Positions 858 to 49,400 of a stretch of 64,000 nucleotides of DNA are shown piece after piece. Both the position numbers and the translations under genes were made by a program. This DNA is from Hawksworthiomyces lignivorus (lineage: Eukaryota; Ascomycota; Sordariomycetes; Ophiostomatales; Ophiostomataceae): the NCBI GenBank assembly GCA_002917075.1, contig NTMA01000045.1, forward strand, positions 1-64,000, in the 5' to 3' direction. The notes under the pieces are model-generated. The model was not told the DNA's origin, searched no databases, and saw only the letters and a program-made list of their open reading frames with translations. Position 1 is the first letter of the stretch; every line of letters begins with the position of its first letter.

Positions 858-971
858 CTATACTTTTTCCGCCTCTTTCTTCGCTCTCAAGCACTCTGCG
901 AGGTTATTCCTGCTAATGAATGTAGAGGGCAGATTTACGCCTAGTACTTTCTCTCGCAGATCGAGCGTCTG
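858..971 (-). pseudogene. Decayed TPR tail downstream of the NLR stop codon
   Basis: On the minus strand, directly after the TGA that ends the NLR (972-974), the same reading frame continues for 37 codons to a TAG at 858-860. It still reads like TPR repeat sequence: a QTLDLREKVLG segment, then NNLAECLRAKKEAEK, matching the QTLELRRQILG and NNLANILQSQGKYEEAE blocks upstream. A CGA arginine codon at the equivalent position of the other repeats explains the TGA by one C-to-T change. The TPR array was therefore once longer. Confidence 0.75.
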
Positions 972-1600
972 TCAGTGCATCGCCTCGGCCTCCTCGTACT
1001 TTCCCTGACTTTGGAGCACATTTACAAGGTTGTTCATGCTGGCGAGTGTATCAGGATGTTCTTGGCCGAGTATCTGACGTCGTAGTTCGAGCGTCTGCCG
1101 ATACATCATCTCGGCTTCGTTGTACTTTCCTTGACTTTGGAGTATATTTGCAAGGTTGTTTGTACTAACGAGTGTATCAGGATGTTCTTGACCGAGTATC
1201 TGACGTCGTAGTTCGAACGTCTGTCGATACATCATCTCGGCTTCGTTGTACTTTCCTTGACTTTGGAGTATATTTGCAAGGTTGTCTATACTGACGAGTG
1301 TATCAGGATGTTCTTGACCGAGTATCTGACGTCGTAGTTCGAGCGTCTGTCGATACATCATCTCGGCTTCGTTGTACTTTCCTTGACTTTGGAGTATATT
1401 TGCAAGGTTGTCTATACTGACGAGTGTATCAGGATGTTCTTGACCGAGTATCTGACGTCGTAGTTCGAGCGTCTGTCGATACATCATCTCGGCCTCCTCG
1501 TACTTTCCTTGACTTTGAAGCACATTTGCAAGGTTGTTCATGCTGGCGAGTGTATCAGGATGTTCTCGGCCGAGCATCTTCTCTCGCAGCATGAGCGTCT
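972..1600 (-). repeat. 126-bp coding tandem repeats (TPR array)
   Basis: About five 126-base units each encode a 42-residue TPR. Phrases such as gtatctgacgtcgtagttcgagcgtctg and catcatctcggcttcgttg recur almost unchanged. The near-identity implies recent duplication or gene conversion, as known for sensor repeats of fungal NLRs under concerted evolution. Confidence 0.9.
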
Positions 1601-4600
1601 TCCTGCGTATCCTCCCAGCCTCTTCGAATCTTCCAAGTCTACATAAAGCATCCCCTACATTACTAAGAAGACGACTTTCAGCCTCCTCATCGCCTGCATC
1701 ACCTCGTAAATCTAAAGCTGTCAGTGCATGCGGCAGGTACTTCATCCATAAGTCTCTGTTGTAATGCCGCGGAAAGGGAAACGCTTCGGCAAGCCGCTGT
1801 ATCACAGAGGTAATGCATTCGCCCCATCTGCTTTTCTGCTTCAACCAATTCTGCATCGCAAGCCGAACCAGCTGATGCATATAGAACGAGCTCGAATTCG
1901 TGCTACCAGATATAAATGCGTATGCTTTCAAAATCATGACTGCTGTATCTCTCTCCAGCTCATCATCCTCATCCTTCTTCACTTTGTCATCTGCTAACGG
2001 CAACAGAGACACTGGGATTTCTCTCTCGGCGAGGAAGCAAATAAATCTCAGGTACTGCGCAGCGAGTTTGTTATCCTGCGAGATGTGATCGAACGAAACA
2101 AGCCAAGTCGTAGCAACTGAGTTCATAGCGGTCGAGGCCGGGTTCTCCAAGTTTCTCATATCACTCAACCGATAATGCCTGAGATATTCAGTCGTCGAAA
2201 TTCCCGTCTCCGCCATATAAGCAGATGCCTGCCTGACGGCTAGAGGGAAGTTTGCTAGCAATTCAAGCAACTCATTCGTGCTTACTACGTCGCGCGTCTG
2301 GCTTCCATTGAGGTTTCGTAGTAACACCTCAGTGGCCTCATCCCTACTCATTTCTTCTATAAGAAAAATCTTCATAGGAAGAATATCTTGCCATGTTTCG
2401 ATCCCGCGATTCCTCGATGTAAGCAGAATCGAACCATTCCGGCTAAAGGGCAGGTATTCGGCGAGTGATACAGCTCCAAACATAAGATCTACATCATCGG
2501 CGTTATCGATGATGAGGAGCCAGCTACTGACACTTACACTTAAAGCAGTTTTTACGAGCAACAGCACGTCTGCACTGTCCTCTTCGACCCCTATTACCTC
2601 GAGCTGTCGGCCTATGTCTCGGAAGGCATTCTCAAAACTGGCGGCATCCACCGCCGGAACCCAGAAGATGGAGCAATTTGGATACCAATCATGAACCCGG
2701 AAAGCTACTTCCAGTGCAATTTGGGTCTTACCGATCCCTCCGAGGCCAATGAGGGCGGTCATTTGGCAGTCATAATCGTCTGCCGTGGGTGGTATGATCT
2801 TCAGAAGCTGCTCTAAGATCTTCTCGCGTCCCACAAAGTTTTCATAGCGCTTGAAGGGGACCATGAAATGACACTGCTCCAGAGCTGAACCGATCGACTG
2901 TCTCTCCAGATGCTTAAGCCTTTTCCACTCTTCATGCTCAGTGAAAATTTTTGCCATAAAGCCCCATTCAAACTGGCGATCTCTTTTGTCACCTAGAGTC
3001 TCGTCAATTTCATCGCGAGGTGCTAATCGCTGTTCTTCAAGATCAAAAACTGAGTCTCCTCTATACTCCGGCTCGATGTAGCCACGCTGATTCTCGAGGT
3101 TGAAGGAACCACGCTGGAAAGACCCAAGGGACTGCCTGACTGTCTCCCTCTCCACAGCCGAATCTGCCATTGTCAGATAGTCAATGTGTTCCGCATCTTT
3201 GTCTATATCGATAGCATGCTCTGGCCACGGGATAGACTTCAATGCCAAATACCGCAGGTCATCACCTATGTGTTCCTCGATGGCTTCAGACTTCTCGCCG
3301 CAAAAGGGACAAGATTCGAAAACGACCTCAGTTGTGGTGCGGCAAGCCTCTAGCATGTACGGTAGTATTTCCTCGCTGACGGTATTTGGGTGTGATTCTT
3401 TCATATGCTCCTCAAGGCCATCCTTTGAGAGAAACTCGATTTCGTCGTCGTGCTCAGTTGAGGTGCAAGTCCATCTGACGAGGTGCGCGGAACGCATATG
3501 CCCTAGCCACTCCTTCCTAGATGAATAAATATCGTGGGGATGGTCACAGTTATCGAAAAGGCACACATAGGCGTCTAGATCTTGTTTGACGTGCTTCCTG
3601 TTAAGTTTATGTGTCAGTATACTAACCAGGAAAGATACCAGCGCAAGAAAACACAGCGACATATTTGTGGAATATGTGATGTGCTGAACTGGGATCAAGC
3701 CGCAATTTCACACTTGAGGGACTGGAAGACGCTGAGTAAAGGTCAACTACGTACTCCCACTGCACTTTGTTCCTACCGACTTTGCTATCTAGGATCAGAC
3801 AGCAGTAATCGCATACAAATTCACCACTAGTCCGACACTCGGGCCGAGGCGGGGGTATAAGCAGCTTGGAGTCTTTGCTCAAGGCGCCAGACCGAGCTGT
3901 AGAGGCGGAGGATGGTGCATAATACCTAGAACGAGCGAGTTCTGTTACCGGACCCTTAGGCTCCAAACTTACAGAGGCCTTCGTCGTCAGTTTATCTGGG
4001 ACTTTTGTCTTGGTCGACAGTTCTATTTCTGGACTGGGGCGTATCTGTGACAACGGGCTCTGGATCGTTGTTGTGGCTCGTTGTGGTTGGTTCTCTTCCG
4101 TTTTGTGCTCATATGTCTCCTGCTGCTTCCATCCAGAATCGAGGCGGTGGCGACGATAGAGAATCCGGCGATGGCGTTCAACCATTGTGCTCGCTATCCT
4201 ATCCTTCAGCTGCTCGGATAGTCCTGGATAATCACGACCGATTAAGAAAGCATAAAGTCGCTTAACGGTGTTTCCATCAAAGCCAGGGACGTTGTTGCTT
4301 CGGGCGCGCAGATTCTGGTTGATGACACTTGCTCTGCGCAGCATGTTGCAGAGACGGTGAAGCCAGTCGATGCTGGTATGTATTGAATCGAGGGCCTCAA
4401 CGTAATTGTAAGTTTCCGGGCAGGAACCCGTGTGTGGCGCCTCGTCGACCCCAGCTTCGGCGCCATCAGCCATAAGAACAGCGTCTTGTCGAGCACTCCC
4501 GGGAGGCGATGTCCTGGCGCCAGAAACAGCTTCGGTTATAGACTCCTCCTGATTTTCAGGCTTCTGAGCATCAATGAGCGCAGACTTATATGATTCCAGC

Positions 4601-5013
4601 CTCGCGAATATAATGTTGAGCAAAGATTTCACCAAATCTAGCTCTTGCGGGAGCTCCCTCAGCCGGTAATCCAATGAATATCGTTCTTTGGCAAAAGCTG
4701 AGGTGTTCGCGGCCCAGATCCTGAACCGGTCTTGTTCGATCCTTAGCCGTTCATTATCTAGCTGGGCATCGATAGGTGGAGGATCAGCGGTGATAGCTTG
4801 GGCTGAGAAGGCGGTACGGAGGGTGGAGACAAACAGATCCAAGCACGACCCTGTCGCATCTCTCACCGACGGGGCTACAGGCTTCTCCTCAGGTCGGGCA
4901 TCCGAGGGATCCTTTGTAAGTGTACCGCCCGCAGATCGTTCTTCCAGCTTGCTCTCCATTGCGATGAAGCAGCACTCGAAACCCTCGGAGAATGAAGTAA
5001 CGTGAAAGCCCAA
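972..5013 (-). CDS. NB-ARC/TPR NOD-like receptor (NLR)
   Basis: Two exons (5013-3755, 3597-972) are joined over a 157-base intron (3598-3754; GTACGT donor, AACAG acceptor), giving about 1294 residues. A second ATG at 4959 is an equally good start. Order: a helical N-terminal region; cysteine pairs around the splice junction and a following C2H2-like segment; an NB-ARC ATPase with P-loop GLGGIGKT, Walker B LLIIDNADD, a GSILLTSR block and an LPLAVRQ motif; then a C-terminal array of 42-residue tetratricopeptide repeats. Fungal proteins of this architecture are NLR-type receptors in self/non-self recognition and programmed cell death; the TPR array is the presumed sensor. The last repeats are nearly identical at DNA level. 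The frame ends at a TGA inside the array, so the protein may be C-terminally truncated. Its start faces the DUF7580-subtilisin gene across a 575-base divergent promoter. The ligand is unknown. Confidence 0.88.
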
Positions 5014-5588
5014 GACTTGAGCGGGGCCGAACAGTTCGCTTGAAAGAGAACCACACAGTCCAAAGAGTATGTATGTCGATATGAATTGAATACCGGTTCT
5101 CGTAAATATGAGGCGACTTATGTTCTTGCGGATGGGGCGCTATCCATGGATTGATTTTGTCAAGATGAGAACTGTGACATAGCGTAGAAAGTTGGGGTTA
5201 GAGTCTGAAGAGGTGCAATTGCGGCGGCTTATTTTGCTGCCAGCGACCAACTCAGAACCTAAAGAACAGGGCATACCCAGGTCGCTCAATGGACGCACAG
5301 TCAGCGCCTCTCATTTGTTCACTTTTCAGACCAGCTTGGCCAGACCTTGTCGACCACAGGCTGTCGCTGCCATGCGCTCTGCGCCAATGAAATTGAGTGC
5401 GGCTGAACTTGACGGAATCTCTCTGCGGCGTGCCCATGCACAGACATTGGGCAGCTCATCAGAAACTGCGCCAGTCCATGCTTCCTGGTCTCTCTTCACA
5501 GCTGCATCATCCCATCACTTCGCCCGCATCTTTAACCCCGTTTTCGTCAACTTCATTGTTCTCACCTCCATTCTCACCACTTCACAGG
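5014..5588. promoter_or_regulatory. Divergent promoter region between NLR and DUF7580-subtilisin genes
   Basis: The 575 bases separate two start codons pointing away from each other. No coding region is supported. Shared regulation of the two genes is an inference from the arrangement; no specific operator was recognised. Pyrimidine-rich sequence lies just before the plus-strand start. Confidence 0.5.
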
Positions 5589-8500
5589 ATGAACAAGGGC
5601 ATGCAGGAATCCGTTCTCGTTACCTACAATGTCGTTGACAGCGCACTACGTGTTTTCCTCAGCAATAGCGAGGAGATCCTCAAAGGCGGGCTGACAGACA
5701 AAAAGCACGAAGAATTCCTAACGTTCGTGAAGACAGGGATTCCCTGCCTTCTAAAAGCATTCGAGAACATCAAGACCTCTAGAAGCGTTAATATCACCGC
5801 CACCCAGATACGAAATTTCGCATCGACCCTGGAGCTGCTGCTCGCCACAAATCTCAACTATGAATTTGACTCCGTAAGTTTCTCATTCGGATTATCCGTC
5901 CCATAGCTATCCATATTGAAGACTCTTTCCCCAGCCATTCCAATCGGAGGTATTCGAAGTTTTGTCGGATGTGCTCTTCGTGAACGGCGTTGTTGCGGGG
6001 TCATTAACAGAATGAAACATGGCCCTATTCTTCGTCTACACTACTTATCTGATATTGAGATTATGGTCGCGTTTAGATGATGAACTGACGTAGGTATCGT
6101 GAATTTCTAGATCCTAAAAAATGCCATCAACTTTCACTACTCAGGCCTCAACTCTCTCCATCTAGAGTCCCAAGCTGGCGAGATCGGACACACAGTGCGT
6201 GTTCGAGAGATTCTGAGCTCACGCATTCGTTGCGAATTTATTCACACTCATATAGAAGAATTATACGACAAACTAGAGCGCATCATCCAACGAGATGCCT
6301 ACGACGATGACGAGGAAGCAGAAGCCACGCAGCCATTTACGCCGTACGATAGTGAATTCTATTCTTGCGTAGACAGCGTCTTCAAGGCTATTGCGTGTGA
6401 ATGTGATCCGAATGAGGAATTGGAAATACGATTAAGGTTGGGTGCTTTCCCATCGCAAGCTCGTGTCCCAATCAAACGGTCTGTAGATATCCTATTGCGG
6501 TGCAAGGACAAGGAAGAGAACTTGGCGTTCTGGCTGGCGATGTGTATTCATTCCTCCCTTGGCCCCAGGTAAGGCTACTGGCCCACCCGCGTTTCGGCAT
6601 GAACAACTAACACCAAACAATAGGACCTCAGAAGATACACCTGAGACACAGATTTTATGTGAGAAATTGCCACAGCTGCGGGTGACGTTTGATACCCCCA
6701 TAGAAGATGTATGTCCTTGGAAAGAAGACGACCCAATCAGCCGCGACTGCATATGTTGGTACGCCAAAGAGACCACATCCGGGTTCAAAACCTTTCTACA
6801 ACATGTGGAGCTCGATGAGGAGGGCTGGCAGCAGCACGAGTGCTGTCCCGAAAGCGACAGCTATCCCACGGAAGAGTATTCCCTTCCTTCCTTGTTCTCA
6901 CAGATGAGCTGGACAGAGGTCGATAAGACCGTGCTGGCAATGCAGCTGGCCCACGCTTTAGCCTACTTCTACGGTGGCGACTGGCTGACCGGACGATGGC
7001 AGGAGCCAAACATTCGCTTCTTTAAATGGGGACCCCGAATTCCATGCAAACCATGGCTTGGGGTGTCACTGCCATCTAAATCAGTTCTGCAAGACTCAGA
7101 ATGCAGCCAGCATTTGTTTCCCCAGATACTGGAACTGGGAATCGTGCTGCTTGAACTCTACATCGGCCAGTCATTAGAGTCATATCTAGATGTGAAAACG
7201 CCCAAAAACTTAAACGAACGGTGGGCTCTGGCTAAGAAAATACTCCAAAATCTCCCCTTCCTCTCAGTGTCCTACAAAAAAGCCGTCGACTTCTGCTTCA
7301 AACCAAGGTTTGGCCGTCTCAAGGCAAGAGAGGCATTAAAGCAGCCCGACGTGGTTCGAGAGTTTGTTTATAAAGAGGTTGTCTCACGCCTCGAGCGGAT
7401 TATCAAGAAATCGAAGCTGGGAACACAAGAGCTCGAATCTCTGGATCTGGGCCTTATCAGACGGAAACTTTCAAGTGAGCCGAAGGCAGCCGAGCTGAGC
7501 AACACAAGCCAATCTCCAAGGCAGAACGATGCGGAAACGAGCAGGATCGCCACAATGTTGGACACCGCCCGCGCCAAACTCGAATCCGTACAAGTACTAC
7601 CGGACACTATTCAAGACGAGCTGGTGACACAGCTTGAAGAAGGTTTTGATCTGTTTGGGGATGAAGAAGGATTTACGCCTAGTAAAGAGTCAGTCTTATT
7701 ATCCAACTCTAACACACTGTTCTTGCCGGGTTTTTCTAACTTCAAGGATAGCTCAGAAGAATCAAAAGTCTGGCTGAAAAAGTTCTCAGGGATCATCGAG
7801 CAGAGGATAGGAAAGCCCAGCAGCCAACCTCCCGGTGGCTGCCGCGTGAAAGTGGCAGTCCTCGATACGGGTATCGACCTCAATCACAGCTATTTCGATG
7901 GTGAATATAAGGCTGGACGAATACGAAACATTGCTTCGTTCGTGGATGGCAAGAATGGGGACGAAGACGAAAGCTGCGGTGACGAGTCTGGTCATGGCAC
8001 CTTCGTCGCGTCCCTTCTTCTCAGCTACGGGCCACACATTGACCTCTACGTGGCGAAAATCTCCAAATCTCGGAACTTCAGAAAAGGGACAATCGAGAAT
8101 GTCAAGAATGTGGGTTACTGGCTTCTCATGCTCCTTTCTCTCTTTATACTAGTTGGTTGTTACAGAGGTGGACGTCAGGTTGGCTCTAACTTAGATCTTC
8201 CTCTAGGCTCTGTATCATGCCCGAGCAGTCTGGGAAGTCGATATCATCACCATGTCATTCGGGTTCCCTTGCGGGATACGAAGTATCTGGGACCAAATTA
8301 CGCTAGCCACACAGAAGAACATCCTCGTTTTTGCAGCCGCTTCTAACGATGGCCTAGACCAGTCCCGGATGTATCCCGCCAGTCAGGACTCGGTTTTCGC
8401 AATACACTCTACATCCTGCAAGGGCAGGGCATCCGGCTTCAACCCGCAGGGGGAGAGAGACGAGAATTTCAGCATACTCGGCGAGTACATCGAGTCCGCA

Positions 8501-8791
8501 TGGCTGACCAAGGAAGGAAGTGGCAGTACCCGAATCCTCTCGGGGACGTCCTTCTCCGCGCCCATCGCGGTGTGCTTAGCTGCTTTTATGATTCTCTACG
8601 TCCCAACCATAATACCAGAGCACGAAACTCTACTTCACAATGTCAAGAGTTACGTAGGAATGAAGAAAATCTTTCAGACAATGGTAGTCGACGATTCTGC
8701 TAAGTACCAATACATCAGCTTGAAGAAGTTCGTGTCGGAGAACAGCCAGAGTGCGATAAATAATGCCATTACTAAGGCCTTGTCGAGGTGA
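5589..8791 (+). CDS. DUF7580 + subtilisin-like serine protease (peptidase S8), HET-Q2-type
   Basis: Five exons: 5589-5873, 5935-5979, 6111-6568, 6624-8109 and 8207-8791, about 952 residues. The second donor (5980) is the least certain junction. The N-terminal half is helical. A DUF7580-type region follows, with the kinase-like signature ILELGIVLLELYIGQSLE that this family shares with fungal prion/HeLo-associated proteins. The C-terminal half is a peptidase S8 domain with the full catalytic set: Asp in VAVLDTGID, His in GDESGHGTFVAS, oxyanion Asn in AAASND and Ser in LSGTSFSAP. There is no signal peptide or propeptide, so a cytoplasmic enzyme is expected. In Podospora the subtilisin HET-Q2 cuts the gasdermin-like HET-Q1 to release pore activity, and such gene pairs are neighbours in many fungi. 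A gasdermin-like gene begins 683 bases downstream on the same strand, so it is the likely substrate. That substrate link is inference. Confidence 0.85.
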
Positions 8792-9474
8792 TATACGTCG
8801 ATCAACGTGTGTTGGCACGAAGTGGTCCAGATTTTGTTGGGAGGTAATATCTGTGGATGGCACCCCTGTTGATTTTGTCATGCATTGGCTTGTTGTCGCA
8901 TAGCCTCGTCAATTGATGTCTGAGATACCCAATTGCTAGTTAAAAATAAAGGAATTCCAAGTCATCGTGTTCACAGCATCTTCGTGTTCGATATTAAGCA
9001 TGCCATTCCAGAACCCCACCATCTTGCTGTATAACTGGCATATTCCGCCACTAAGAATCCGACAAGCTTTCTCTCCTAGGGGGGCGGGAATTTTTGAACC
9101 GCAAGGCTTAGCCCAGAAGGTGACTGATTGGATCAATAATACGGAGTAGCATTGCGGCTGAAAGGTATCATGGTCTTGACAGAGGTCTTTCCCAGGCTTG
9201 CCAGGCTCCCATATTCTAGGAAGCGGTGGTACGCCTCGACAATGACACTATCCGAACCCCTCACTCAGTCTGAAAGGGTTTAATGATCTCACTTCGCAAA
9301 AATACACAAAACTCGGAGCCTCAGTCAACTCAAAATGTCGAGCATATTCTAACCGAATCACGCATACGTCCTAATACGGTCAGATGGAACAATCAATCAT
9401 AAGAGCCGACTAAAGGAATCCTGCAGGAAATAGCCACTTCTTTGTAGGTACCGTTCCGATCAATTATCTGCGAA
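8792..9474. other. Intergenic between protease and gasdermin-like genes
   Basis: I see no coding region here. The stretch holds the 3' end of the protease transcript and the promoter of the next gene. Two tandem same-strand genes share this 683-base spacer. Confidence 0.5.
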
Positions 9475-10320
9475 ATGGCGAACGTGGTCAAGAACTATTT
9501 CCTGGCCCCGAGCTGGGACTACGCTCCTGATGCCAAGCCAGGCGTGACCATCGCACTATGGAGCCTCGTCACTTCGCCGACGAAGATGGTTCCCCCCCTT
9601 GTGGCTGCAATAGCGATACCAGATGATGAAGACGTCGTAAATTCGACTAAATATGACTTCGAGTGGGTCCGCAAGCGCAACAAAGAGAAGAAGTTCGGCG
9701 TGTGGACGACGTTTCTCGACCAGCTCGTGGGTATTGGGCTTAAGCTTGGCCACAAGCGCACGACGTCAATCCACGACCTCTACACGTTTGAGAAGATGCA
9801 CACCAAGGAGGCATATCCTAGCAGGGAGTATGTCGAGAAGATGGTCAAGATGGAATCCGTCAAGAAGTATCTGGAAAAGTTCGACTTCGAAAAGCCCATC
9901 TACCTCATAGTTGGGACCAAGGCCGTCAGCGGCACGACAGTTAAGCAGGTGCTGAAAGAGGAGACGGCAATGGACATGAAGTTCTCCATTGACGCGACCC
10001 CGTCCGGAACACACATGGCTCTAGGCCCAGAGCTGGACTCATCGACAAAAAATGGCGATACGCTCAAGTTCGACGGTTCCACTGGTTTCGTGTTTGCTTT
10101 CCGGATGAGAAAGATTGTTGTCAATCGGAAATTTAAGATTGAGGATGAGAGTGATGCGGAAGGCGGCGTGCTTGGGCCGAATGAACAAGCGGAACAGGAT
10201 ATTGAGGTACAAGGAATTGAGGAGCGTGATGCCATTGACTTACCTGCCGGTGGGAAGAGGGTGGTTGTGGAGGATAATGATGAGACCGTCTATGTTACAG
10301 TAATTGAAGATAGTGCATGA
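9475..10320 (+). CDS. Fungal gasdermin-like pore-forming protein (HET-Q1/RCD-1 type)
   Basis: A single exon encodes 281 residues. The N-terminus (NYFLAPSWDYAPDA) and the later blocks FGVWTTFLDQLVGIGL, IYLIVGTKAVSGTTV and FVFAFRMRKI match the pattern I associate with the fungal gasdermin family (Neurospora RCD-1, Podospora HET-Q1). These are cytosolic proteins whose N-terminal region inserts into membranes and kills the cell after loss of a short C-terminal inhibitory segment. The last 60 or so residues are acidic and look like a separable tail (after residue 215), which would suit such control. The length agrees with HET-Q1-like proteins. The neighbouring protease gene strongly supports the call, since fungal gasdermin genes commonly sit beside subtilisin or caspase-like protease genes. 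Residue-level cleavage sites cannot be seen. The family call is by pattern recall and was not verified by search. Confidence 0.72.
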   Translation: MANVVKNYFLAPSWDYAPDAKPGVTIALWSLVTSPTKMVPPLVAAIAIPDDEDVVNSTKYDFEWVRKRNKEKKFGVWTTFLDQLVGIGLKLGHKRTTSIHDLYTFEKMHTKEAYPSREYVEKMVKMESVKKYLEKFDFEKPIYLIVGTKAVSGTTVKQVLKEETAMDMKFSIDATPSGTHMALGPELDSSTKNGDTLKFDGSTGFVFAFRMRKIVVNRKFKIEDESDAEGGVLGPNEQAEQDIEVQGIEERDAIDLPAGGKRVVVEDNDETVYVTVIEDSA

Positions 10321-11129: not shown

Positions 11130-11765
11130 CCAGGTTGCATTTGGGGGTGGAGTTCATTTTTGTCCCTATTACTCAAGTTGATCCATCATAAGGGAGCCCA
11201 GCTATAACCTAGCCTTGAGAGTTTTGTAATATCTGTCTTTTAGTACCTGTAACTTTGTCCAATATCAGCACCGTCTTAACGCCAGCGCTCAAGGCGGTCC
11301 GGCTACCAGGCGAGAAAGCTACAGTATCGATCCGGTGTGAATGAACTCAAATCACCCACTGCTCAGCACCTGTGGCCGCGTCCCATATCCGCACTGTATT
11401 ATCGCTAGAGCCCGATATAATAAGACGTCCGTCATGCGAGAAGGTTACAGCAGAGACTATGCTGGGATTACTAAGTGTTTGTAAATGTGCGCTCCAGTCC
11501 TTTGAAAGTGTCAGCAAGTGCACTATCCACTTTGGCAGTAGATGGATGTGAAGTCGTCGAATGGTACTCACCTCCGGACTAAAGACTAGAGCGGAAGAGT
11601 ATATCTGTAGTGGAGCCACTCCAATAATCCAGCTATGGCTTAGAAGGAATCGCCTCGCATCATAAACTACTTCACGTAGAGGCGGAGTGTCTTGAACACG
11701 TTTAGACGTGAGCTTAGCTTTTATCCTACGAAAGAGGGCTCGAGATCCTGTTTCAGTGCCTCTCT
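11130..11765 (-). pseudogene. NWD40-type NLR relic (NACHT-WD40 junction)
   Basis: On the minus strand an open stretch reads through DARRFLLSHSWIIGVAPLQIYSSALVFSPE, the linker of NACHT-WD40 proteins (split here: DARRFLLSHSWIIG and APLQIYSSALVFSPE). A first WD40 repeat follows (AVTFSHDGRLIISGSSDNTV, RIWDAATGAEQ). The frame then stops at 11347. A second, shifted frame continues with TVAFSPGSRTALSAG and KTVLILDKVTGTKRQILQ, broken by TAG (11209-11211) and TGA (11173-11175). One frameshift and two or more stops make it a pseudogene of an NLR class different from the intact TPR-type gene. Confidence 0.78.
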
Positions 11766-11996
11766 TTAAACCGTTAGCTGCAACGCGCTGACGGGGTGGT
11801 ACGTCCCGGCTGCCTGATCGTAGCAGGGTGTCCGCGTGTCTGGGTTCCCTGGGTCGGAGAGCACCTCGATGACGCTCTGCGCGATGCCCTGCACCGACAT
11901 GAAGAGCAGCTTGACGCTGTTAGGTGCGCCGGCCACCGTGGTCTGGACGGCTCTGAGGGCTTCGTAGGTTCGGTAGGGATTTTCTGCCGTGGACAT
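11766..11996 (-). CDS. Small hypothetical protein, 76 residues
   Basis: The frame begins MSTAENPYRTYEALRAVQ and has higher GC than its flanks. An AT-rich stretch that could serve as promoter lies upstream (12000-12200). I recognise no domain, signal peptide or membrane segment. It abuts the NWD40 relic on the same strand and could be either a real small gene or another fragment. The opposite-strand frame 11796-12077 is taken as a shadow. Confidence 0.35.
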   Translation of the reverse strand: MSTAENPYRTYEALRAVQTTVAGAPNSVKLLFMSVQGIAQSVIEVLSDPGNPDTRTPCYDQAAGTYHPVSALQLTV

Positions 11997-13396
11997 ATTG
12001 TGAAAAGTTTGATAGTGTTTGAGATATTTGAGTTCAGAGAGATACGGTGTTTTGCTTCGATGAAATGTGGGTTGTAAGAGAGCAAGAGAGTTGAAGTGTC
12101 GGGGGTGACCTCGTTTAAGGTAATAGTTTATGAATAAAAAACTAAAACTTATATATCTTCTATAACTAGCGCATAAAATATTGGAAATTCATAAACAAAG
12201 ATGTCTATATGTATCTTTTTCAAATAGTACAAAATTATCTATATTACCCCCTATTAATTTTATATGCCTTTTATAGATCTGACCCGTTACAACGACAACT
12301 ATTCCGTATACAACTAACAATATGGAGTACAAACTCTTACTTCTAAGTGTCTCTTGTTTATGTAAATTCAATGCTAAGCTACTACTTAGATTGGAGATTG
12401 CCTAGGGGTTTCTACGATGACAGCTGGGAGGAGCTCAACTTGTGGCCATCAGATCACAATATGAAACCAATGCACATCAGTATGCGTTAATCGAGCGATG
12501 AGCGACTATTGATCGATCGCTCGACCACCTGGACTAAGAGCAGCCTCGGAGCGCAAGCAGCAGTCGACCGACGGCTAAGAGCTTATGGCCGGGATGAAAC
12601 CGCTAATTCTGTTCGGATAGAGCTGTCGCATGGCTTGCTCCAGCTTTCCTGCATCGCCGAATCTCTTCATTTTTCGAAAGCCAAAATATATCGCTTCGTA
12701 GCACCGATCAGCCTGGCGACTGTCATTATGACTAGAACAGCCAGTCTCGTCGACTTTTTCTTGTTGCTTTTGGCTCTTCTAGCTTTGGCAAGGTGCTGGC
12801 CAGGAATATGCTCATAATTTCAAAGGCTGTGATTGTTTCAGGGCGTTCTCCAGGACCGATGCCTGAAAGGGTGAATTCGGGTTGAACGAACCTGTTAAGC
12901 TAGACTAGGCCGTGCGTATTTGCGGCGACACGACCGCCGCGAGCTCTTTTCTCTCGGCCGCCATGCACAAGGCTGCAGCAGTGGGAATACCAGTTTTGTT
13001 CTCATGTCCTATTACCTTCTTATGAACAATTGCTTTATAGCAACGTATGACATCTCCAACAAATCCCACTGAACCGCAGCAACCCGCCGCTGAGAACACT
13101 GCACGAACTCATTGGCTGACGGGATATGAAGCTTGGCCTACCCCTCACTGCTTTGTCGTATTGAGGTATTCTCTTGGATGCCCTGCTCTTCCGCTAGCCT
13201 TGTCCACAGTTGAAAAGCAGCCAGCCGCTGCTTACGCTCATCCTTTTTGAGGGCGCTACCGAGGTGCTGCCCGACTAGGACAAAATTGCTCTGGAATGAG
13301 AGTTTGAAGCAGTAGATTTCTTGGAGCCGACAGAACCAGACCCGGCTGGGACGGATTCCTTTTCACCAGCATTGATTGAGCAGAACGCGCCTCACC
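11997..13396. other. Intergenic, AT-rich then mixed; no supported gene
   Basis: Sequence from 12100 to 12400 is strongly AT-rich. Short frames at 12509-12817 and 12905-13250 have no recognisable features. The last few hundred bases form the promoter and leader of the HET gene. Confidence 0.5.
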
Positions 13397-15439
13397 ATGG
13401 AGGCAAACAACATCGTCGGCGCTGCGCCACACTATTCTCTCCTGGAGCCGTCCAAGAGAGAGATCCGCCTGCTCACCTTTGCGTTCGAGCCCGACTCTCC
13501 GTATCCTATCCACGCGACACTGTCGACCTGCTCCCTGGACGACAAGCCGACCTACAACGCCCTGTCATATACGTGGGGCGACCCGCAAGCCAGCCAGGCG
13601 GTGCTCGTCTGCGGCTGCGTGGTGCGCGTGACGCGGAACCTGGTGGCCGCGCTCGTCTGCCTGGCACGGCAGGGCTACAGCGGCCAGCCGCTATGGGTCG
13701 ACGCGCTGTGCATCAACCAGGCGGACCTGGCGGAGCGCGCGGCGCAGGTGGCGCTGATGGGCGCGCTGTACGCGGGCGCGGGGCTGGTGCTGGCCTGGCT
13801 GGGGGAGGCGAGCGTGACCAGCGCGGCGACGCTGCGACTGGTGCGGCAGCTGGGCCGCGACGTGCGGCGCTGGCGCGGCAGCGGCCGGCGCGACGTGGCG
13901 TGGCTGGCGGAGCCCGTCTATCACGCGCTGTGCGCGCAGTTTGGTGCCGACGCCGACGCCGATGCCGGCAGCGCCATCCTGCAGAGCGTGAACGAGCTGC
14001 TCTTCCGGCGCGCGTACTTTTTGCGCGCCTGGACATTCCAGGAGCTGCTGCTGGCCGCCGACGGCGTGCTGCTCTGCGGCGACGCCACGTGCGGCCTGCG
14101 CGACGTGGTCGCCGTGTGCCAGAGCTTCGCCGCCGGCGCCGACGTGTTCGACCTAGTGGGCCCCCCGACAGGCGTTGACCGGCGCCTCTGGGCCCTGATC
14201 TACCGCCTAGCCACTACCGTGGACTACGGTGTCATCGACAGCGCGTTTGAGTGGTGGCCTGACGCCGACGCCCTGCAGACCTACGACGGCGTCGATCTCA
14301 TGATGGTCGTGTTTCTGCGGCAGGCCAGCAACCCGCTGGACAAGGTGTACAGCCTCCTGGGCGTGTCCCAGCTAGCCGTCCCGGTAGACTATGCTATGCC
14401 GTACCCGGCGCTGTATGCCCAGCTCGCCCGCCGATGGATGGAAAAGGCATCCGAGGTGGGGGAGGCCAAGGATATTGCCCGCGTCCTCAGCCTCGCCAAC
14501 ATGGATCGTGCGGCGGGGCCGGCGCTGCCATCGTGGGCCCCCGACTGGGACGGGCTGTCCAAGATGCGACGGCTCCCGTACTTGATGGGCACGCGCTGGA
14601 AGCCGCGCCCCGGCGGGCCCGGCACCATTGACATTCTCGGGCCGAATACCGAGTTTCCGGCGGCGCTGCGCGCCACCCGGTTCGAGGGCGCCACCGGGCT
14701 GGTGGTCCAAGGTGTCGTCCTCGACACGGTCGACGCCACGTGCTCTGGCGGCCTTTGCACGAATCTCGAGTTTCTGTTCGGCGCCGACCTGATCTCCGTC
14801 GCGGACCTCATTCTGGCCGGACCGCCGCGCAGCACGCGCTACCGCACGGGCATCCCGCTGGCGCTAGCCGTCCTGCGACTGGTGACCGAGGACACAGACT
14901 TTCTCGACAGCGATCAGGTCCGACTGAGCCCGGCCTCGCCCAACTTCGACTACATCCTGGGCGTCTTTCTGCAGCTGGTGCTCCGGCTCTGCGGATTGGA
15001 CGTCCCGGGCCGGGACCGTCGGACGCCTGACTTGCCCGTGCCCCCGCTGAGCGCGGTGGTCGACGAGAACAGGATGCACTTCTTGACGGTGGAGCAGCTC
15101 GCGCGCGCCTGCGCCCAGCAGCTGGACCAGGAGGTGTGCATGGAGGCGGAGCAGCGGCTCCTGCGGCGCAATCCCGTCTTGGAAGAGCTGTCAAGACGGA
15201 GAACCACCAGGGTGTTTTACACCCGCACGGGATACATGGGCTTCGGCCACCACGCCATCCAGTCCGGCGACGTCGTCTGCGTCTGCGGCAGCACCAACAC
15301 CCCGCTGATTCTCCGCCGTGCCGGGGACCACTATACGTTTGTAGCAACCGCGCACGTCGTGGGCCTCATGTGGGAAGGGACCGTATGGCCCCGGGTGGAA
15401 GCCGGCGAGTTTACGGTGGAGAAGATTGTCATCCATTGA
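13397..15439 (+). CDS. HET-domain (heterokaryon incompatibility) protein
   Basis: A single exon encodes 680 residues; the start is chosen at CACCATGG, a strong fungal context, because the frame upstream has no ATG. The HET domain occupies about residues 45-240 with its three diagnostic blocks: YNALSYTWGDP, LWVDALCINQ followed by a WLGEA turn, and FLRAWTFQELLLA. The C-terminus keeps the GYMGFG and later strand blocks typical of the family. HET proteins trigger cell death after fusion of unlike hyphae or act downstream of NLRs; the HET domain is TIR-like. GC is markedly higher than in the flanking DNA. Its position next to an NLR, a gasdermin-like gene and HET/NLR relics places it in an incompatibility island. 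Partner and trigger are unknown. Confidence 0.93.
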   Translation: MEANNIVGAAPHYSLLEPSKREIRLLTFAFEPDSPYPIHATLSTCSLDDKPTYNALSYTWGDPQASQAVLVCGCVVRVTRNLVAALVCLARQGYSGQPLWVDALCINQADLAERAAQVALMGALYAGAGLVLAWLGEASVTSAATLRLVRQLGRDVRRWRGSGRRDVAWLAEPVYHALCAQFGADADADAGSAILQSVNELLFRRAYFLRAWTFQELLLAADGVLLCGDATCGLRDVVAVCQSFAAGADVFDLVGPPTGVDRRLWALIYRLATTVDYGVIDSAFEWWPDADALQTYDGVDLMMVVFLRQASNPLDKVYSLLGVSQLAVPVDYAMPYPALYAQLARRWMEKASEVGEAKDIARVLSLANMDRAAGPALPSWAPDWDGLSKMRRLPYLMGTRWKPRPGGPGTIDILGPNTEFPAALRATRFEGATGLVVQGVVLDTVDATCSGGLCTNLEFLFGADLISVADLILAGPPRSTRYRTGIPLALAVLRLVTEDTDFLDSDQVRLSPASPNFDYILGVFLQLVLRLCGLDVPGRDRRTPDLPVPPLSAVVDENRMHFLTVEQLARACAQQLDQEVCMEAEQRLLRRNPVLEELSRRRTTRVFYTRTGYMGFGHHAIQSGDVVCVCGSTNTPLILRRAGDHYTFVATAHVVGLMWEGTVWPRVEAGEFTVEKIVIH

Positions 15440-45261: not shown

Positions 45262-46484
45262 TTTCTATTTTACATAGATGTATGTATAGAGATAGAGAGA
45301 GACCAGTAGACAGAAGAGAATGAAAACGCAGAGTTGAACAAAACGGCATACTTTTACGAGATACTTCGAAAAGATCAAATGCAATTGTGATAAACGTATC
45401 AATGCCATTTTTAGGCCTTGCGGCAGCTCAGAAGTAATACAGAAAGCAGGGCATCTGTGCCACTGTGATTCGGCATTTAGCAGGGTACTGTACTTGTACG
45501 AGTTCGAGTACTCGAACAACAAAGCAGCGGCGTGTATCTAGAGGCCACCGATCTTTGCGCGGTTGGTTTCCCCCACGGGGTAATGTTGGTCTGGCGCCTT
45601 TGTCTGCTTGCTTTCTGGTTAGGTTTCTACAGGGATCAAACTCTGTACGCCTTCGCCTCAGCTGGCGAGCTTTTGCAGCCAGTCAGTCAAGCACTGAGGC
45701 CCCTATATTCAAGAGCATAGCGGTGGTATCGTTCAGTGATGAACAGCGTTCCTTCTTTGCCCCGCAGCGCTCGCCACTCGACGTTTTCTGGCCCCTTCTT
45801 CTCCGGATTAATAATTATCGTATTATTGTATATCTTTTATAGTAATAGTCTGTATAGTCGAATATATTGCAATAAAACAGTACCAATAGTATGGATAACT
45901 AAGTATTACTTGTATTACTAAGACGGTTTTGTTTAGGACGACGACGACCGAGAGTCTTACAGGGCTGTGGCATACCTTCGAAGCTGCTACGTATCCTGCA
46001 GCTGCCTTGGATGGAGGCGTAGATGGACAAAACGACGCCGGATCTTGTTTAAGAATACTCTTCTTCTTTTATTTTGTCTTGATTTCTCTTATTCCTGCTC
46101 ATAGAGCGTTTTCGAAAGCCGGGCGTACCACTTTCTTGCCCCTGCACAGCTAACTCAGCCGAGACGGGAACATTGTTACAGAGTCTCAAGCTCAGAGCGA
46201 CTGTGAGAACGCCAACTTGCTCTCTCCAAGTACACATCACTTCTGTGTAGAAATTATACATACATATATATGTGGAAAGCTGACTTGGCTTCCCATCTTT
46301 TTGCTTAGGTTTTCGTTAGGATTCGCATTACTTTGTCCGTTCTCTTCTTGCCCAAGACGCTGTCAACATCGACTTCCAAACCTTGAAGCACGGTCCTCTC
46401 CTCGCCCCCTCTGACAACGAACGATAGCACTATGATGCACCAACAGGAACGGTGAGACCACGACCATCGTCATAGACACCCCCT
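45262..46484. other. Intergenic with palindrome
   Basis: No gene is supported. A perfect 16-base palindrome lies at 45502-45517. The last 200 bases are the leader of the GHKL gene. Confidence 0.5.
45502..45517. promoter_or_regulatory. 16-bp perfect palindrome
   Basis: The sequence gttcgagtactcgaac equals its own reverse complement. It lies 240 bases after the acyl-CoA ligase stop. It could bind a dimeric protein or be chance. Confidence 0.25.
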
Positions 46485-49400
46485 ATGGACTACACCAAGC
46501 TTCGTGCCGCCGCTCTGCGCGATGGCGAAGACGAAGAGGCCGTCACCGTCGACACCCGCGCTCTAATCGACAAGGTCCTAGCTCGGTATTCCGGAGAATG
46601 GACCACGCTCCGCGAGCTGATCCAGAACGCCGCCGACGCCCAGGCCACCACCGTCAAGATCAAGTGGGAGACGCTGCCCTCGACGACAGTGCCGCTGCCA
46701 CCCGGGGCAGACGCCAACAGCCTGCTCCGGCACACCATCCTCCACCACACCCTCCGCCGCCTGCTCGTCGAGAATGACGGCCAGCCCTTTACGCCCACCG
46801 ACTGGGCGCGCCTCAAGCGCATCGCCGAGGGCAACCCGGACGAGACCAAGATCGGCGCCTTTGGCGTCGGCTTCTACAGCGTCTTTGCCGACTGCGAGGA
46901 GCCCTTTGTCAGCTCCGGCCGCGAGGCCATGGCCTTTTACTGGAAGGGCAACGCCCTGTTTACGAGGAAGCTGGTCGTACCCGAGGACGCCGCTGCCCAG
47001 AACAACAACAAGACCACCTTTGTGCTGGACTACCGCAGCGCCACCACCGCCCTCCCCAACCTGCTCTCCGTCAGCCAGTTCCTGGCCACCAGCCTGACCT
47101 TTGTCGCCCTGCAGCGCATCGAGTTCTGGATCGACGACTGGAAGATCCTCGACCTCCACAAGAAGCTGTCGCCCAGCGCCGCCGTGAGCGTCCCGCGCGA
47201 CCTCGACGTCCGCACAAAGGACGGCCTGATGACCGTCACGGCCGTCGAGCGAAACAGCGCCCAGATCGACGCCGCCTACATGAACGCCGTGGGCTGGAAG
47301 CCGCCAGCCGGCGGCGGCGCAGCAAACTCCTCTGGCCTGCAGGCCGGCTCGTCCGCGTCGTCTGCCGCCGCCGCCGGAGGCGGCAGCAAGACGACCGACT
47401 CGTACGGGCTATCTGCCGGCGACCTGCCGTCGCTGCGCAACTTCTTCTCGCGGCTCACCGGGTCGTCGTCGTCCTCCTCCTCGGCGCAGAGCCAGCAACG
47501 GAGCAAGGCGGCCCGCGAGGAGAAGGCAGCCCAAGACGCCTTGCAGCAGAACCTGACCGGCTTGGGGCGGTCGACCATCTTCCTGCGCGTGACGTCGGCC
47601 CAGGTGCAGACCAAGGTGGCCGCCAACTTTTCCAAGGAGCTCGAGCGCGCGACCAAGAAGCCGCCGCCCAAGACGACAAAGATGGCCATCCTCACGTCGT
47701 CGTACGACGACATCGTCGCGTCCGACATGGTAGTGAGAGCAAACAGCTCTGGCGCAGGCGCCGGCGCCGGTGCCGCTTCGCCCCAGCAGGTGCCGCCGCC
47801 AATACCAAAGGACAGAGGCCTTCCAGCCAACTCTGGCTCGCCTGCCGCGCCGTCCGCCGACATCTTTGCGTCTGTGCTGCCCAGCAAGAAGCCTGGCGGC
47901 CGCATCTTCATCGGCTTCCCGACCATGCAGACGACCGGCGGTGGCATGCACATCTCCGCCCCGTCTCTGATCCCCACGGTCGAGCGCGAGGCCATTGATC
48001 TCAACGCCCGCTGGGTCCGCACCTGGAACATGGAGCTGCTCCGCGTCTCGGGCATCCTTACGCGTCTGGCTTTCATCAACGAGATGGCCGATCTAGATGC
48101 CAAGTTCCGGAGGCATCTCGAATCCAACCGGCCAAACGCGGCCAAGAACAGCCGCGTGCAGCCCATCCCTACCGCGGCCGAGATTGCCCAGTTCGTGCCG
48201 GAGGCGCTGCACATCCTCAAGACGTACACGTTTGGCGACTCGACACCCAGCGGCTACGTGGGCCAGATCATCGAAGAGGCCTTCTGGACCGCCTACAAGC
48301 AGCCCACCGTCGACATGTTCTCCAGCCGCGGCGTGCTGTCCACGGCCAAGGTGCGCATGGGCAACGAGGAGATCGCCAAGTTTGTCAGCGGCATCCCCGT
48401 CGTCGTGCCGCAGATGAAGGACAACCCCTTTGTGCAGAAGCTGCACGAGTTTGGCATCGTCCAGGACGTCACCATCGAAGACGTGCGCTCCGAGCTGGAG
48501 GAGAAGCCGCTCGACAAGGAGCAGCTCTCCCACTTTGTCAAGTGGCTGTCGGCCGGCGCCGCCTCGGGCGAGCTCGACCCGCCTAGCGTGCAGTCGCTCC
48601 TGCGCGTGGGCGTGGCGAGCGTGGTCGAGGGCGGCGAGAGCGGCGACAAGGAGAGCGGCGGCAGCCCGAGCGCGGGCGACGAGTCGACCGTCAAGATCAT
48701 CGAGCTCCGCGGCATCCAAAACTTCCTCGCGGGCAACAAGATCCCGGCCAACCTCCCCCTCCCGCCGTCCACCATACCGTACTCCATCACCAGCGCCATT
48801 CCCGCCCAGCAGCTGCAGGCTCTGCGCTGGACGCCGCTGGAGCTGGTGCCCTGGCTCAACTACCTGGTCGTGGCGAGGGCCCGGCTGGGCGACGACCGCA
48901 ACGTGACCCAGTCGCCCGCGTTTGCCGCGCAGGTGCTCACCGTGCTGTCTAAGAACTGGGACAACCTCAGCGCGCAGCACAAGGCGTCCGCCGTGACCCT
49001 GCTCCAGGGCCACACGACCATCCCCACCCGCGTGGGCATGAAGAAGCCGCCCGAGGCCTTCTTTCCGTCCGTCAAGCTGTTCGACGACCTGCCCGTCATA
49101 GCCCCGAGCTGCCACAACCTCAAGGAGAAGTTCCTGGTTGCGCTAGGCGTGCGCAAGACCATCGATCTGGACACCATCTTCACGCGCCTGCTGAGCCAGC
49201 CCGCCGACGCCGCCGCCGCCGACGGGAACCAGCTGGGCGCAGCCAGCAAGAAGTGGAGCCACGTGGAGCTCGTCCGGTATCTCGCTTCTGTGCGCGCAGA
49301 CATCCCCAAGGCAGACATGGCCAAGCTGCACGACTCGCCGATCTGCCCCGCTGAGGCAGGCCCCGCCGGGCTGGAGTCGACCGTGCCCAGCATCAAGCTG

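What the first reader, a model, noticed from the sequence alone, without database searches (positions are those of the whole stretch)
972..10320. NLR, DUF7580-subtilisin and gasdermin-like genes in one three-gene block: a candidate fungal inflammasome-like module
Directly seen: an NB-ARC/TPR receptor is divergent from an active-looking subtilisin, and a gasdermin-like gene follows on the same strand as the protease. Established: Podospora HET-Q2 (subtilisin) cleaves gasdermin-like HET-Q1, and fungal gasdermins often sit beside proteases. Inferred: the NLR senses a non-self signal and couples, via the protease, to pore formation. That extra NLR layer beside the pair is the potentially undescribed part.
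Basis: partly seen in the sequence, partly recalled or inferred. Interest (0 to 1): 0.9.

Follow-up and report, generated by a model that had tools for sequence, protein, structure and literature searches.

The report
Fungal NLR–protease–gasdermin cell-death module
In a fungal genome a receptor gene, a protein-cutting enzyme gene and a pore-forming "gasdermin" gene sit side by side; the receptor's front half recurs beside the same kind of partner gene elsewhere in this genome and, judging by record labels, near gasdermins in other fungi, while its sensing half changes freely, which suggests a plug-in alarm system for fungal cell death.

Summary
The three genes are real. The 281-aa protein is a fungal gasdermin (family profile against RCD-1, E 8.7e-14; HET-Q1, E 6.7e-6). 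The middle gene encodes DUF7580 plus a subtilase with intact catalytic residues. The divergent gene is longer than reported (972-4959): a ~600-residue helical/C2H2 "N-module", NB-ARC, then near-identical TPRs.

A gasdermin beside an S8 protease is already published. What looks new is the third gene. The 5 intact DUF7580 genes found here each have a divergent N-module gene beside them; a sixth, decayed copy does not, nor do 6 other S8 loci checked of 13. The 5 species named in both protein searches carry N-module and gasdermin homologues on the same contig. The N-module is conserved, the NLR is not: C-terminal parts are NB-ARC, ankyrin, NACHT-like or a catalytically degenerate subtilase; one annotated relative ends in a gasdermin domain.

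Best reading: a modular sensor–protease–pore unit, inflammasome-like in logic. Linkage is shown in this genome and read from labels elsewhere; NLR-dependent activation is inferred.

The parts
972..4959 (-). Third (receptor) gene: exons 4959-3755 and 3597-972, intron 3598-3754; 1276 aa, N-module + NB-ARC + TPR
2901..4869 (-). N-module (residues ~31-634): helical region + C2H2-like cysteine/histidine region; 44-48% identical to P0037-P0040, whose contigs also hold a gasdermin homologue
   Evidence: coordinates computed from the model; 'helical' is read from sequence, no structure was obtained
2097..2774 (-). NB-ARC domain
   Evidence: E 3.6e-5, 23.6 bits, cut-off 23.5; paralogues
954..1579 (-). 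Tandem 126-bp (42-aa) TPR array, 5 copies, 92% matches; neighbouring full units 116-125 of 126 bases identical; a stop codon at 972-974 ends the protein inside the array
4960..5588 (.). 629-bp divergent intergenic region (possible shared promoter)
   Evidence: gene models; promoter function inferred
5589..8791 (+). Protease gene: exons 5589-5873, 5935-5979, 6111-6568, 6624-8109, 8207-8791 (stop included); 952 aa, DUF7580 + Peptidase_S8
   Evidence: P0031 aligns over residues 4-950 at 45% identity
6910..7404 (+). DUF7580 domain
7843..8608 (+). Subtilase (S8) domain; catalytic codons Asp 7864, His 7993, Ser 8549, oxyanion Asn 8345
9475..10320 (+). Fungal gasdermin, 281 aa, single exon
10129..10317 (+). 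C-terminal tail (~63 residues) beyond the region aligned to RCD-1; candidate inhibitory segment removed by cleavage
   Evidence: role inferred from HET-Q1

Best explanation
A three-gene, programmed-cell-death unit with exchangeable sensors. The divergent gene makes a receptor whose C-terminal NB-ARC and near-identical TPR repeats sense a non-self or danger signal. On activation it oligomerises and its N-terminal helical/C2H2 module engages the DUF7580 protein encoded next door. This brings together or unlocks the attached subtilase, which clips the short C-terminal tail off the neighbouring gasdermin, and the freed gasdermin forms membrane pores and kills the hyphal compartment. Shown here: gene identities, intact catalytic residues, recurrent divergent N-module-DUF7580 pairing in this genome, and swapping of the sensor half. 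Read from contig lengths and locus tags: linkage of N-module and gasdermin in five other fungi. Inferred: N-module-DUF7580 contact, direction of control, cleavage and pore formation in this species, and the signal.
For: Gasdermin. Active-looking protease. Pairing in this genome: the profile search finds 5 DUF7580 loci, all five with a divergently transcribed N-module gene beside them; chance of five such neighbours about 5e-15 if independent (copies of one pair would not be independent). Controls: of 13 other S8 loci (my count) 6 were fetched with ~20 kb each, and none has an N-module or a gasdermin of this family. A second locus (C130) repeats N-module gene, DUF7580-S8 and gasdermin. Other species: the four best hits of the receptor search of a 5.8-billion-protein database (P0037-P0040, N-module 44-48% identical) and P0060 (31%) lie on the same contig as a gasdermin homologue: 5 of 5 species present both among the 14 gasdermin hits I took as named and the 24 N-module hits; 3 of them also have the DUF7580-S8 homologue there. 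Locus tags: QQS21_002026/002028, FQN49_000274/000276, F4679DRAFT_564144/564148/564149, F4680DRAFT_435187/435188/435192. P0038 joins N-module, degenerate S8, ULD_2 and an RCD-1-like gasdermin (E 3e-20) in one annotated protein. Near-identical repeats suggest recent homogenisation, as expected of a changing recognition surface (expectation from family knowledge).
Against: Only 2 of the 5 intact pairs have a gasdermin of this family. S8 was found at 3 of 5; C152 has none, and C153 cannot be judged because its contig ends 0.7 kb after the DUF7580 frame. So the pair also occurs without this output. A sixth, decayed DUF7580 locus (C115), missed by the profile search, has no detectable N-module. The NLR domain itself is not conserved in the third gene, and the window's NB-ARC is at the cut-off. 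The window NLR ends at a stop inside its TPR array, so it may be a shortened or failing allele. P0038 may be a fused gene model. For 9 of the 14 named gasdermin hits no N-module hit on the same contig was found (the searches are capped). No cleavage site was identified.
Confidence: 0.55

Rival explanations
1. The third gene is a brake, not a trigger: the N-module protein binds and restrains the DUF7580-protease, and a non-self or pathogen factor that disturbs the receptor (or its dead-subtilase part in relatives, acting as decoy or inhibitor) releases the protease, like a guarded pair.
For: Divergent pairing suits balanced expression. In 3 of 3 linked relatives with an S8-like part in the third gene, catalytic residues are lost: Ser to Thr and Asn to Asp in P0037 and P0039, Asp to Gly and Ser to Asp in P0038, while the five DUF7580-S8 relatives aligned (P0031-P0035) and the window protease keep them.
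Against: Other third genes have NB-ARC or NACHT-like cores, which usually act by activation and oligomerisation (family knowledge); 2 of 10 third genes looked at are NB-ARC and 2 NPHP3_N.
Confidence: 0.25
2. The gasdermin-S8 pair acts alone as an ordinary two-gene unit; the NLR is a neighbour by chance in a stretch crowded with recognition genes.
For: The genome has about 138 NLR-type loci by profile and paralogue searches; a HET-domain gene and a frame that reads like an NLR-type WD40 fragment (by eye) lie within 6 kb of the gasdermin. A review heads fungal gasdermins and their proteases as two-gene clusters (PMC10197012).
Against: The N-module gene recurs divergently at 5 of 5 intact DUF7580 loci and at 0 of 6 other S8 loci fetched, and on gasdermin contigs in 5 of 5 species found in both lists.
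Confidence: 0.1
3. The locus is a decaying remnant: the NLR is cut short by a stop inside its repeats and the unit no longer works in this strain.
For: Stop at 972-974 with a repeat-like frame continuing beyond it; the genome also holds a decayed DUF7580 copy at C115:518360-519740, with 15 stops in its longest match.
Against: Protease and gasdermin frames are open and alignable end to end to relatives; repeat number varies freely in such receptors (family knowledge), and at least five TPR units remain.
Confidence: 0.1

Closest known systems
Podospora anserina HET-Q1/HET-Q2 and the Q2L protease-gasdermin two-gene clusters (Clavé et al. 2022, known here only through reviews PMC10197012, PMC12881547 and PMC10989679, passages and one section read; the primary paper is not held)
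   Same: Fungal gasdermin of similar length (281 vs 278 aa) beside an S8 protease with intact catalytic residues; the reviews give about 60-63% of fungal gasdermins as clustered with S8 proteases.
   Different: A third, divergent receptor gene with a conserved N-module is coupled to the pair; the protease carries DUF7580; the NLR is separate from the protease rather than fused to it.
Fungal NLRs with a protease as N-terminal domain (contracted pyroptotic-like pathways in the same reviews)
   Same: NOD-type receptor plus protease at gasdermin loci.
   Different: Here receptor and protease are two divergently transcribed genes; the receptor's N-terminus is a helical/C2H2 module, not a protease.
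nwd2/het-S and other NLR-pore-former two- or three-gene clusters of fungi (review PMC12881547, passages read)
   Same: Genomic pairing of an NLR with the death executor it commands.
   Different: Those signal by amyloid templating to a HeLo/HELL pore-former; here a protease and a gasdermin are encoded, and amyloid motifs were not looked for.
Mammalian inflammasome: NLR, caspase, gasdermin D (recalled)
   Same: Order of parts: NLR-type sensor, protease, gasdermin.
   Different: Subtilase instead of caspase; no CARD/PYD among the Pfam families listed; control by the NLR untested.
Bacterial CARD-NLR-protease(-gasdermin) defence systems (PMC13236601, passages read)
   Same: NLR-like protein encoded with a protease, and in Lysobacter with a gasdermin effector.
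   Different: A trypsin-like peptidase with a CARD-like domain in the system read; here S8 with DUF7580 and a C2H2 module.

Membership tests
Fungal gasdermin (RCD-1/HET-Q1 family) | Sequence homology over the pore-forming domain | tested here: met
   Profile of 24 sequences: RCD-1 E 8.7e-14, HET-Q1 pore E 6.7e-6
Fungal gasdermin (RCD-1/HET-Q1 family) | Gasdermin fold | tested here: inconclusive
   AlphaFold2 pLDDT 55.7, pTM 0.57; fold search failed or was switched off
Fungal gasdermin (RCD-1/HET-Q1 family) | Short C-terminal inhibitory tail removed by a protease; pore formation | not testable with these tools
   A tail of ~63 residues lies beyond the aligned core; its role is inferred
HET-Q2-like (Q2L) S8 protease | Subtilase with intact catalytic residues within 10 kb of a gasdermin gene | tested here: met
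   Asp677, His720, Asn805, Ser873; gasdermin starts 683 bp downstream
HET-Q2-like (Q2L) S8 protease | Cleaves the neighbouring gasdermin | not testable with these tools
   none
NLR | NB-ARC/NACHT core | tested here: met
   NB-ARC just over cut-off, not listed in the genome-wide NB-ARC search; NB-ARC-TPR paralogues up to 56% identical
NLR | C-terminal superstructure repeats | tested here: met
   TPR_10, TPR_12; 126-bp array
Inflammasome-like pathway | NLR-type sensor, protease and gasdermin encoded together, beyond chance | tested here: inconclusive
   The N-module/DUF7580 partner is linked beyond chance, but an NLR core is present in only 4 of 10 third genes looked at
Inflammasome-like pathway | NLR-dependent protease activation through a homotypic adaptor domain | not testable with these tools
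   No CARD/PYD/death-fold among the Pfam families listed (25 of 33 families shown for the NB-ARC/TPR frame); N-module structure job failed and the tool was then off

The most novel reading that the evidence does not exclude
The helical/C2H2 N-module and the DUF7580 protein are a dedicated plug and socket of fungal immunity: a divergent gene pair kept together through deep divergence, into which evolution fits different sensors (NB-ARC-TPR, NACHT-ANK, ankyrin-only, dead subtilase-TPR) on one side and different outputs (subtilase plus gasdermin, subtilase alone, unknown) on the other, playing the part that CARD, PYD or amyloid motifs play elsewhere.
Probability: 0.4. Interest if true: 0.88.

Novelty: new variant of a known kind. 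Interest (0 to 1): 0.72.

Why it matters
What controls the proteases that activate fungal gasdermins is named as work still to be done in the 2025 review (PMC12881547, section 20 read). A recurrent partner gene with a changing sensor half points at a possible upstream component and makes it testable by deleting one gene. It would also show that the sensor–protease–gasdermin logic of the inflammasome exists in fungi as separate, shuffled genes rather than only as fused NLR-proteases, and would give DUF7580, a domain of unknown function named in 0 papers of the held library, a place in immunity.

Tried and rejected
Pure chance neighbourhood: rejected on recurrence. "The NLR domain is the conserved third part": rejected, since only 4 of 10 third genes looked at have an NB-ARC or NACHT-like core. 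N-module as a domain spread all over this genome: not borne out; searches with the window exon, its C2H2 part and P0044 find it at the five DUF7580 loci plus a C2H2-only match at C26 without DUF7580 in C26:16200-25800; the match at C117 is to the other end of P0044. These searches score limited candidates, so counts are lower bounds. DUF7580 as a pseudokinase: not shown; the profile of whole DUF7580-S8 proteins matches 126 PDB sequences at E 1, and the 60 listed are subtilisin-type (S8) proteases. N-module against PDB: 0 matches at E 0.1. Other fungi's DNA: no fungal genome collection is open here, so linkage was read from contig lengths and locus tags. Protein searches are word-based and cut at ~8000 candidates, so species missing from the lists are no evidence of absence. 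P0060 as query swamps the N-module with NACHT and ankyrin matches. Dropped rows: 6 of 29 gasdermin hits were left out of alignment A1 (P0005, P0014, P0016, P0019, P0020, P0027; fragments or shorter); unnamed hits were left out of the contig comparison (14 of 29 gasdermin hits used, all 7 DUF7580 hits, 24 of 59 receptor hits, those with N-module similarity).
Full report
What is there. The window is bases 1-64000 of contig C132 (297 kb) of a 43.7-Mb genome in 191 contigs. The named relatives of the gasdermin and the protease are ascomycete fungi (class recalled); the species was not determined. The three genes stand as reported. The protease gene runs 5589-8791 in five predicted exons; its model is supported over residues 4-950 by a 45% identical protein of Purpureocillium lilacinum. 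Its second exon is only 45 bp long and the donor after it (GTGAAC) is unusual, so that corner is less sure. The gasdermin gene is a single exon, 9475-10320.

The gasdermin. No Pfam model reaches its cut-off. One sequence finds RCD-1 at E 0.001. A profile of 24 sequences (the window protein and 23 of 29 hits) finds RCD-1 at 8.7e-14, the HET-Q1 pore structure at 6.7e-6 and bacterial gasdermins at 0.14-0.17. The structure model is poor, so fold evidence is missing. Membership rests on sequence.

The protease. DUF7580 and Peptidase_S8 are both above cut-off. The Asp, His and Ser of the triad and the oxyanion Asn are present and align with those of P0031-P0035. P0030 and P0036 end before these positions or lack the part.

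The third gene. Its first ~600 residues (N-module) have no Pfam hit in the exon that holds most of them. They are 44-48% identical to four fungal proteins, P0037-P0040, 32-34% to nine Trichoderma proteins and 31% to P0060 of Arthroderma. P0037-P0040 and P0060 are on contigs of the same length, and from the same species, as gasdermin homologues found in a separate search. Of 14 named gasdermin hits and 24 N-module hits compared, five species occur in both lists, and in all five the two proteins share a contig. In three of them the DUF7580-S8 homologue is on it too; Thelonectria has gasdermin and DUF7580 on one contig. N-module and gasdermin locus tags are two to five apart in four species; in Ilyonectria they are 28 apart on a 1.49-Mb contig, so adjacency is not shown there. 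JGI-style tags need not follow gene order.

Recurrence in this genome. The DUF7580 profile finds five loci. A protein query finds a sixth, full of stops, at C115. All five intact loci have an N-module gene, transcribed away from the DUF7580 gene. The decayed one has none detectable in the 9 kb fetched. Six of the 13 other S8 loci were fetched with about 20 kb each and have neither N-module nor gasdermin of this family. One C2H2-type match at C26 has no DUF7580 in the 9.6 kb fetched. The window receptor is 21-28% identical to three of the other four copies and matches the fourth (C130) only weakly or through the profile, so the pairing is old or repeatedly selected. If the five were independent, chance would be about 5e-15, but copies of one ancestral pair are not independent.

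What changes and what stays. Third-gene parts after the N-module in this genome: NB-ARC-TPR (C132), NB-ARC (C152; the frame after it was not scanned), ankyrin repeats (C110), nothing beyond C2H2 in the frames scanned (C153), and the rest of a 716-aa frame with only sub-cut-off hits (C130). In relatives: S8-like plus TPR (P0037, P0039), S8-like plus ULD_2 plus gasdermin (P0038), NPHP3_N (P0040), NPHP3_N plus ankyrins (P0060). The S8-like parts of P0037-P0039 have lost catalytic residues, so they look like decoys or inhibitors. Outputs change as well: three DUF7580 loci here carry S8 (C132, C130, C110), C152 has none, and C153 cannot be judged because the contig ends 0.7 kb beyond its DUF7580 frame. 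Two loci have a gasdermin (C132, C130). The stable element is therefore N-module with DUF7580.

How it probably works. The receptor repeats are near-identical units (116 to 125 of 126 bases between neighbouring full units), the kind of array that changes specificity by recombination (family knowledge). I infer that ligand binding lets the receptor gather the DUF7580-protease through the N-module, that the protease trims the gasdermin tail, and that pores form. The HET-Q1/HET-Q2 precedent for the last two steps comes from reviews (PMC10197012 and PMC10989679, passages; PMC12881547, passages and section 20). The opposite sign, receptor as brake, is my main rival.

Comparison with what is known. 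Reviews report that about 80% of fungal gasdermin genes are clustered with protease genes (63% S8, 19% CHAT in PMC10197012), that some of these proteases are fused to NLRs, repeats or kinase-like domains, and that pathways often come as two- or three-gene clusters. I saw no description of a separate, divergent C2H2/N-module partner in the passages read or in the listings of searches of the held library; several of those listings are cut (20 of 1,238, 15 of 21). DUF7580 appears in 0 papers. [quoted passage not shown] The primary HET-Q paper is not held, and its supplementary lists could already contain some of these genes as Q2L proteins, above all P0037-P0039.

Limits. Other species' DNA was not seen. 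NB-ARC in the window is at the cut-off. The NLR ends in a stop within its own array. Nothing about function was measured.

Noticed in passing
window 13376-15436 (+) and 11347-12188 (-): A HET-domain gene (Pfam HET, E 1.6e-25) and a frame that reads by eye like the WD40 start of a NACHT-WD40 NLR lie about 3 kb and 1 kb from the gasdermin, at the start of the contig: a small cluster of recognition genes.
   Followed up: partly
L009/L010 (contig C130:236689-242374): Second N-module / DUF7580-S8 / gasdermin locus of the same genome, with the gasdermin convergent instead of co-directional; its N-module gene continues in a 716-aa frame of unknown kind (weak NOV_C, NYN).
   Followed up: partly
P0038 (Conoideocrella luteorostrata QQS21_002028), residues ~1158-1361: RCD-1-like gasdermin domain (E 3e-20) at the end of a protein that starts with the N-module and holds a degenerate subtilase and a ubiquitin-like ULD_2 domain; either a true fusion or a merged gene model.
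   Followed up: partly
L034 (contig C115:518360-519740): Decayed sixth DUF7580 copy with many stops and no N-module detectable in the 9 kb fetched.
   Followed up: yes
window 972-1579: 126-bp TPR repeats up to 125 of 126 bases identical, with the protein's stop inside the array and a repeat-like frame continuing after it.
   Followed up: partly
window 46476-52205 (+): 1910-aa frame with DUF3684 and a sacsin-type ATPase domain.
   Followed up: no
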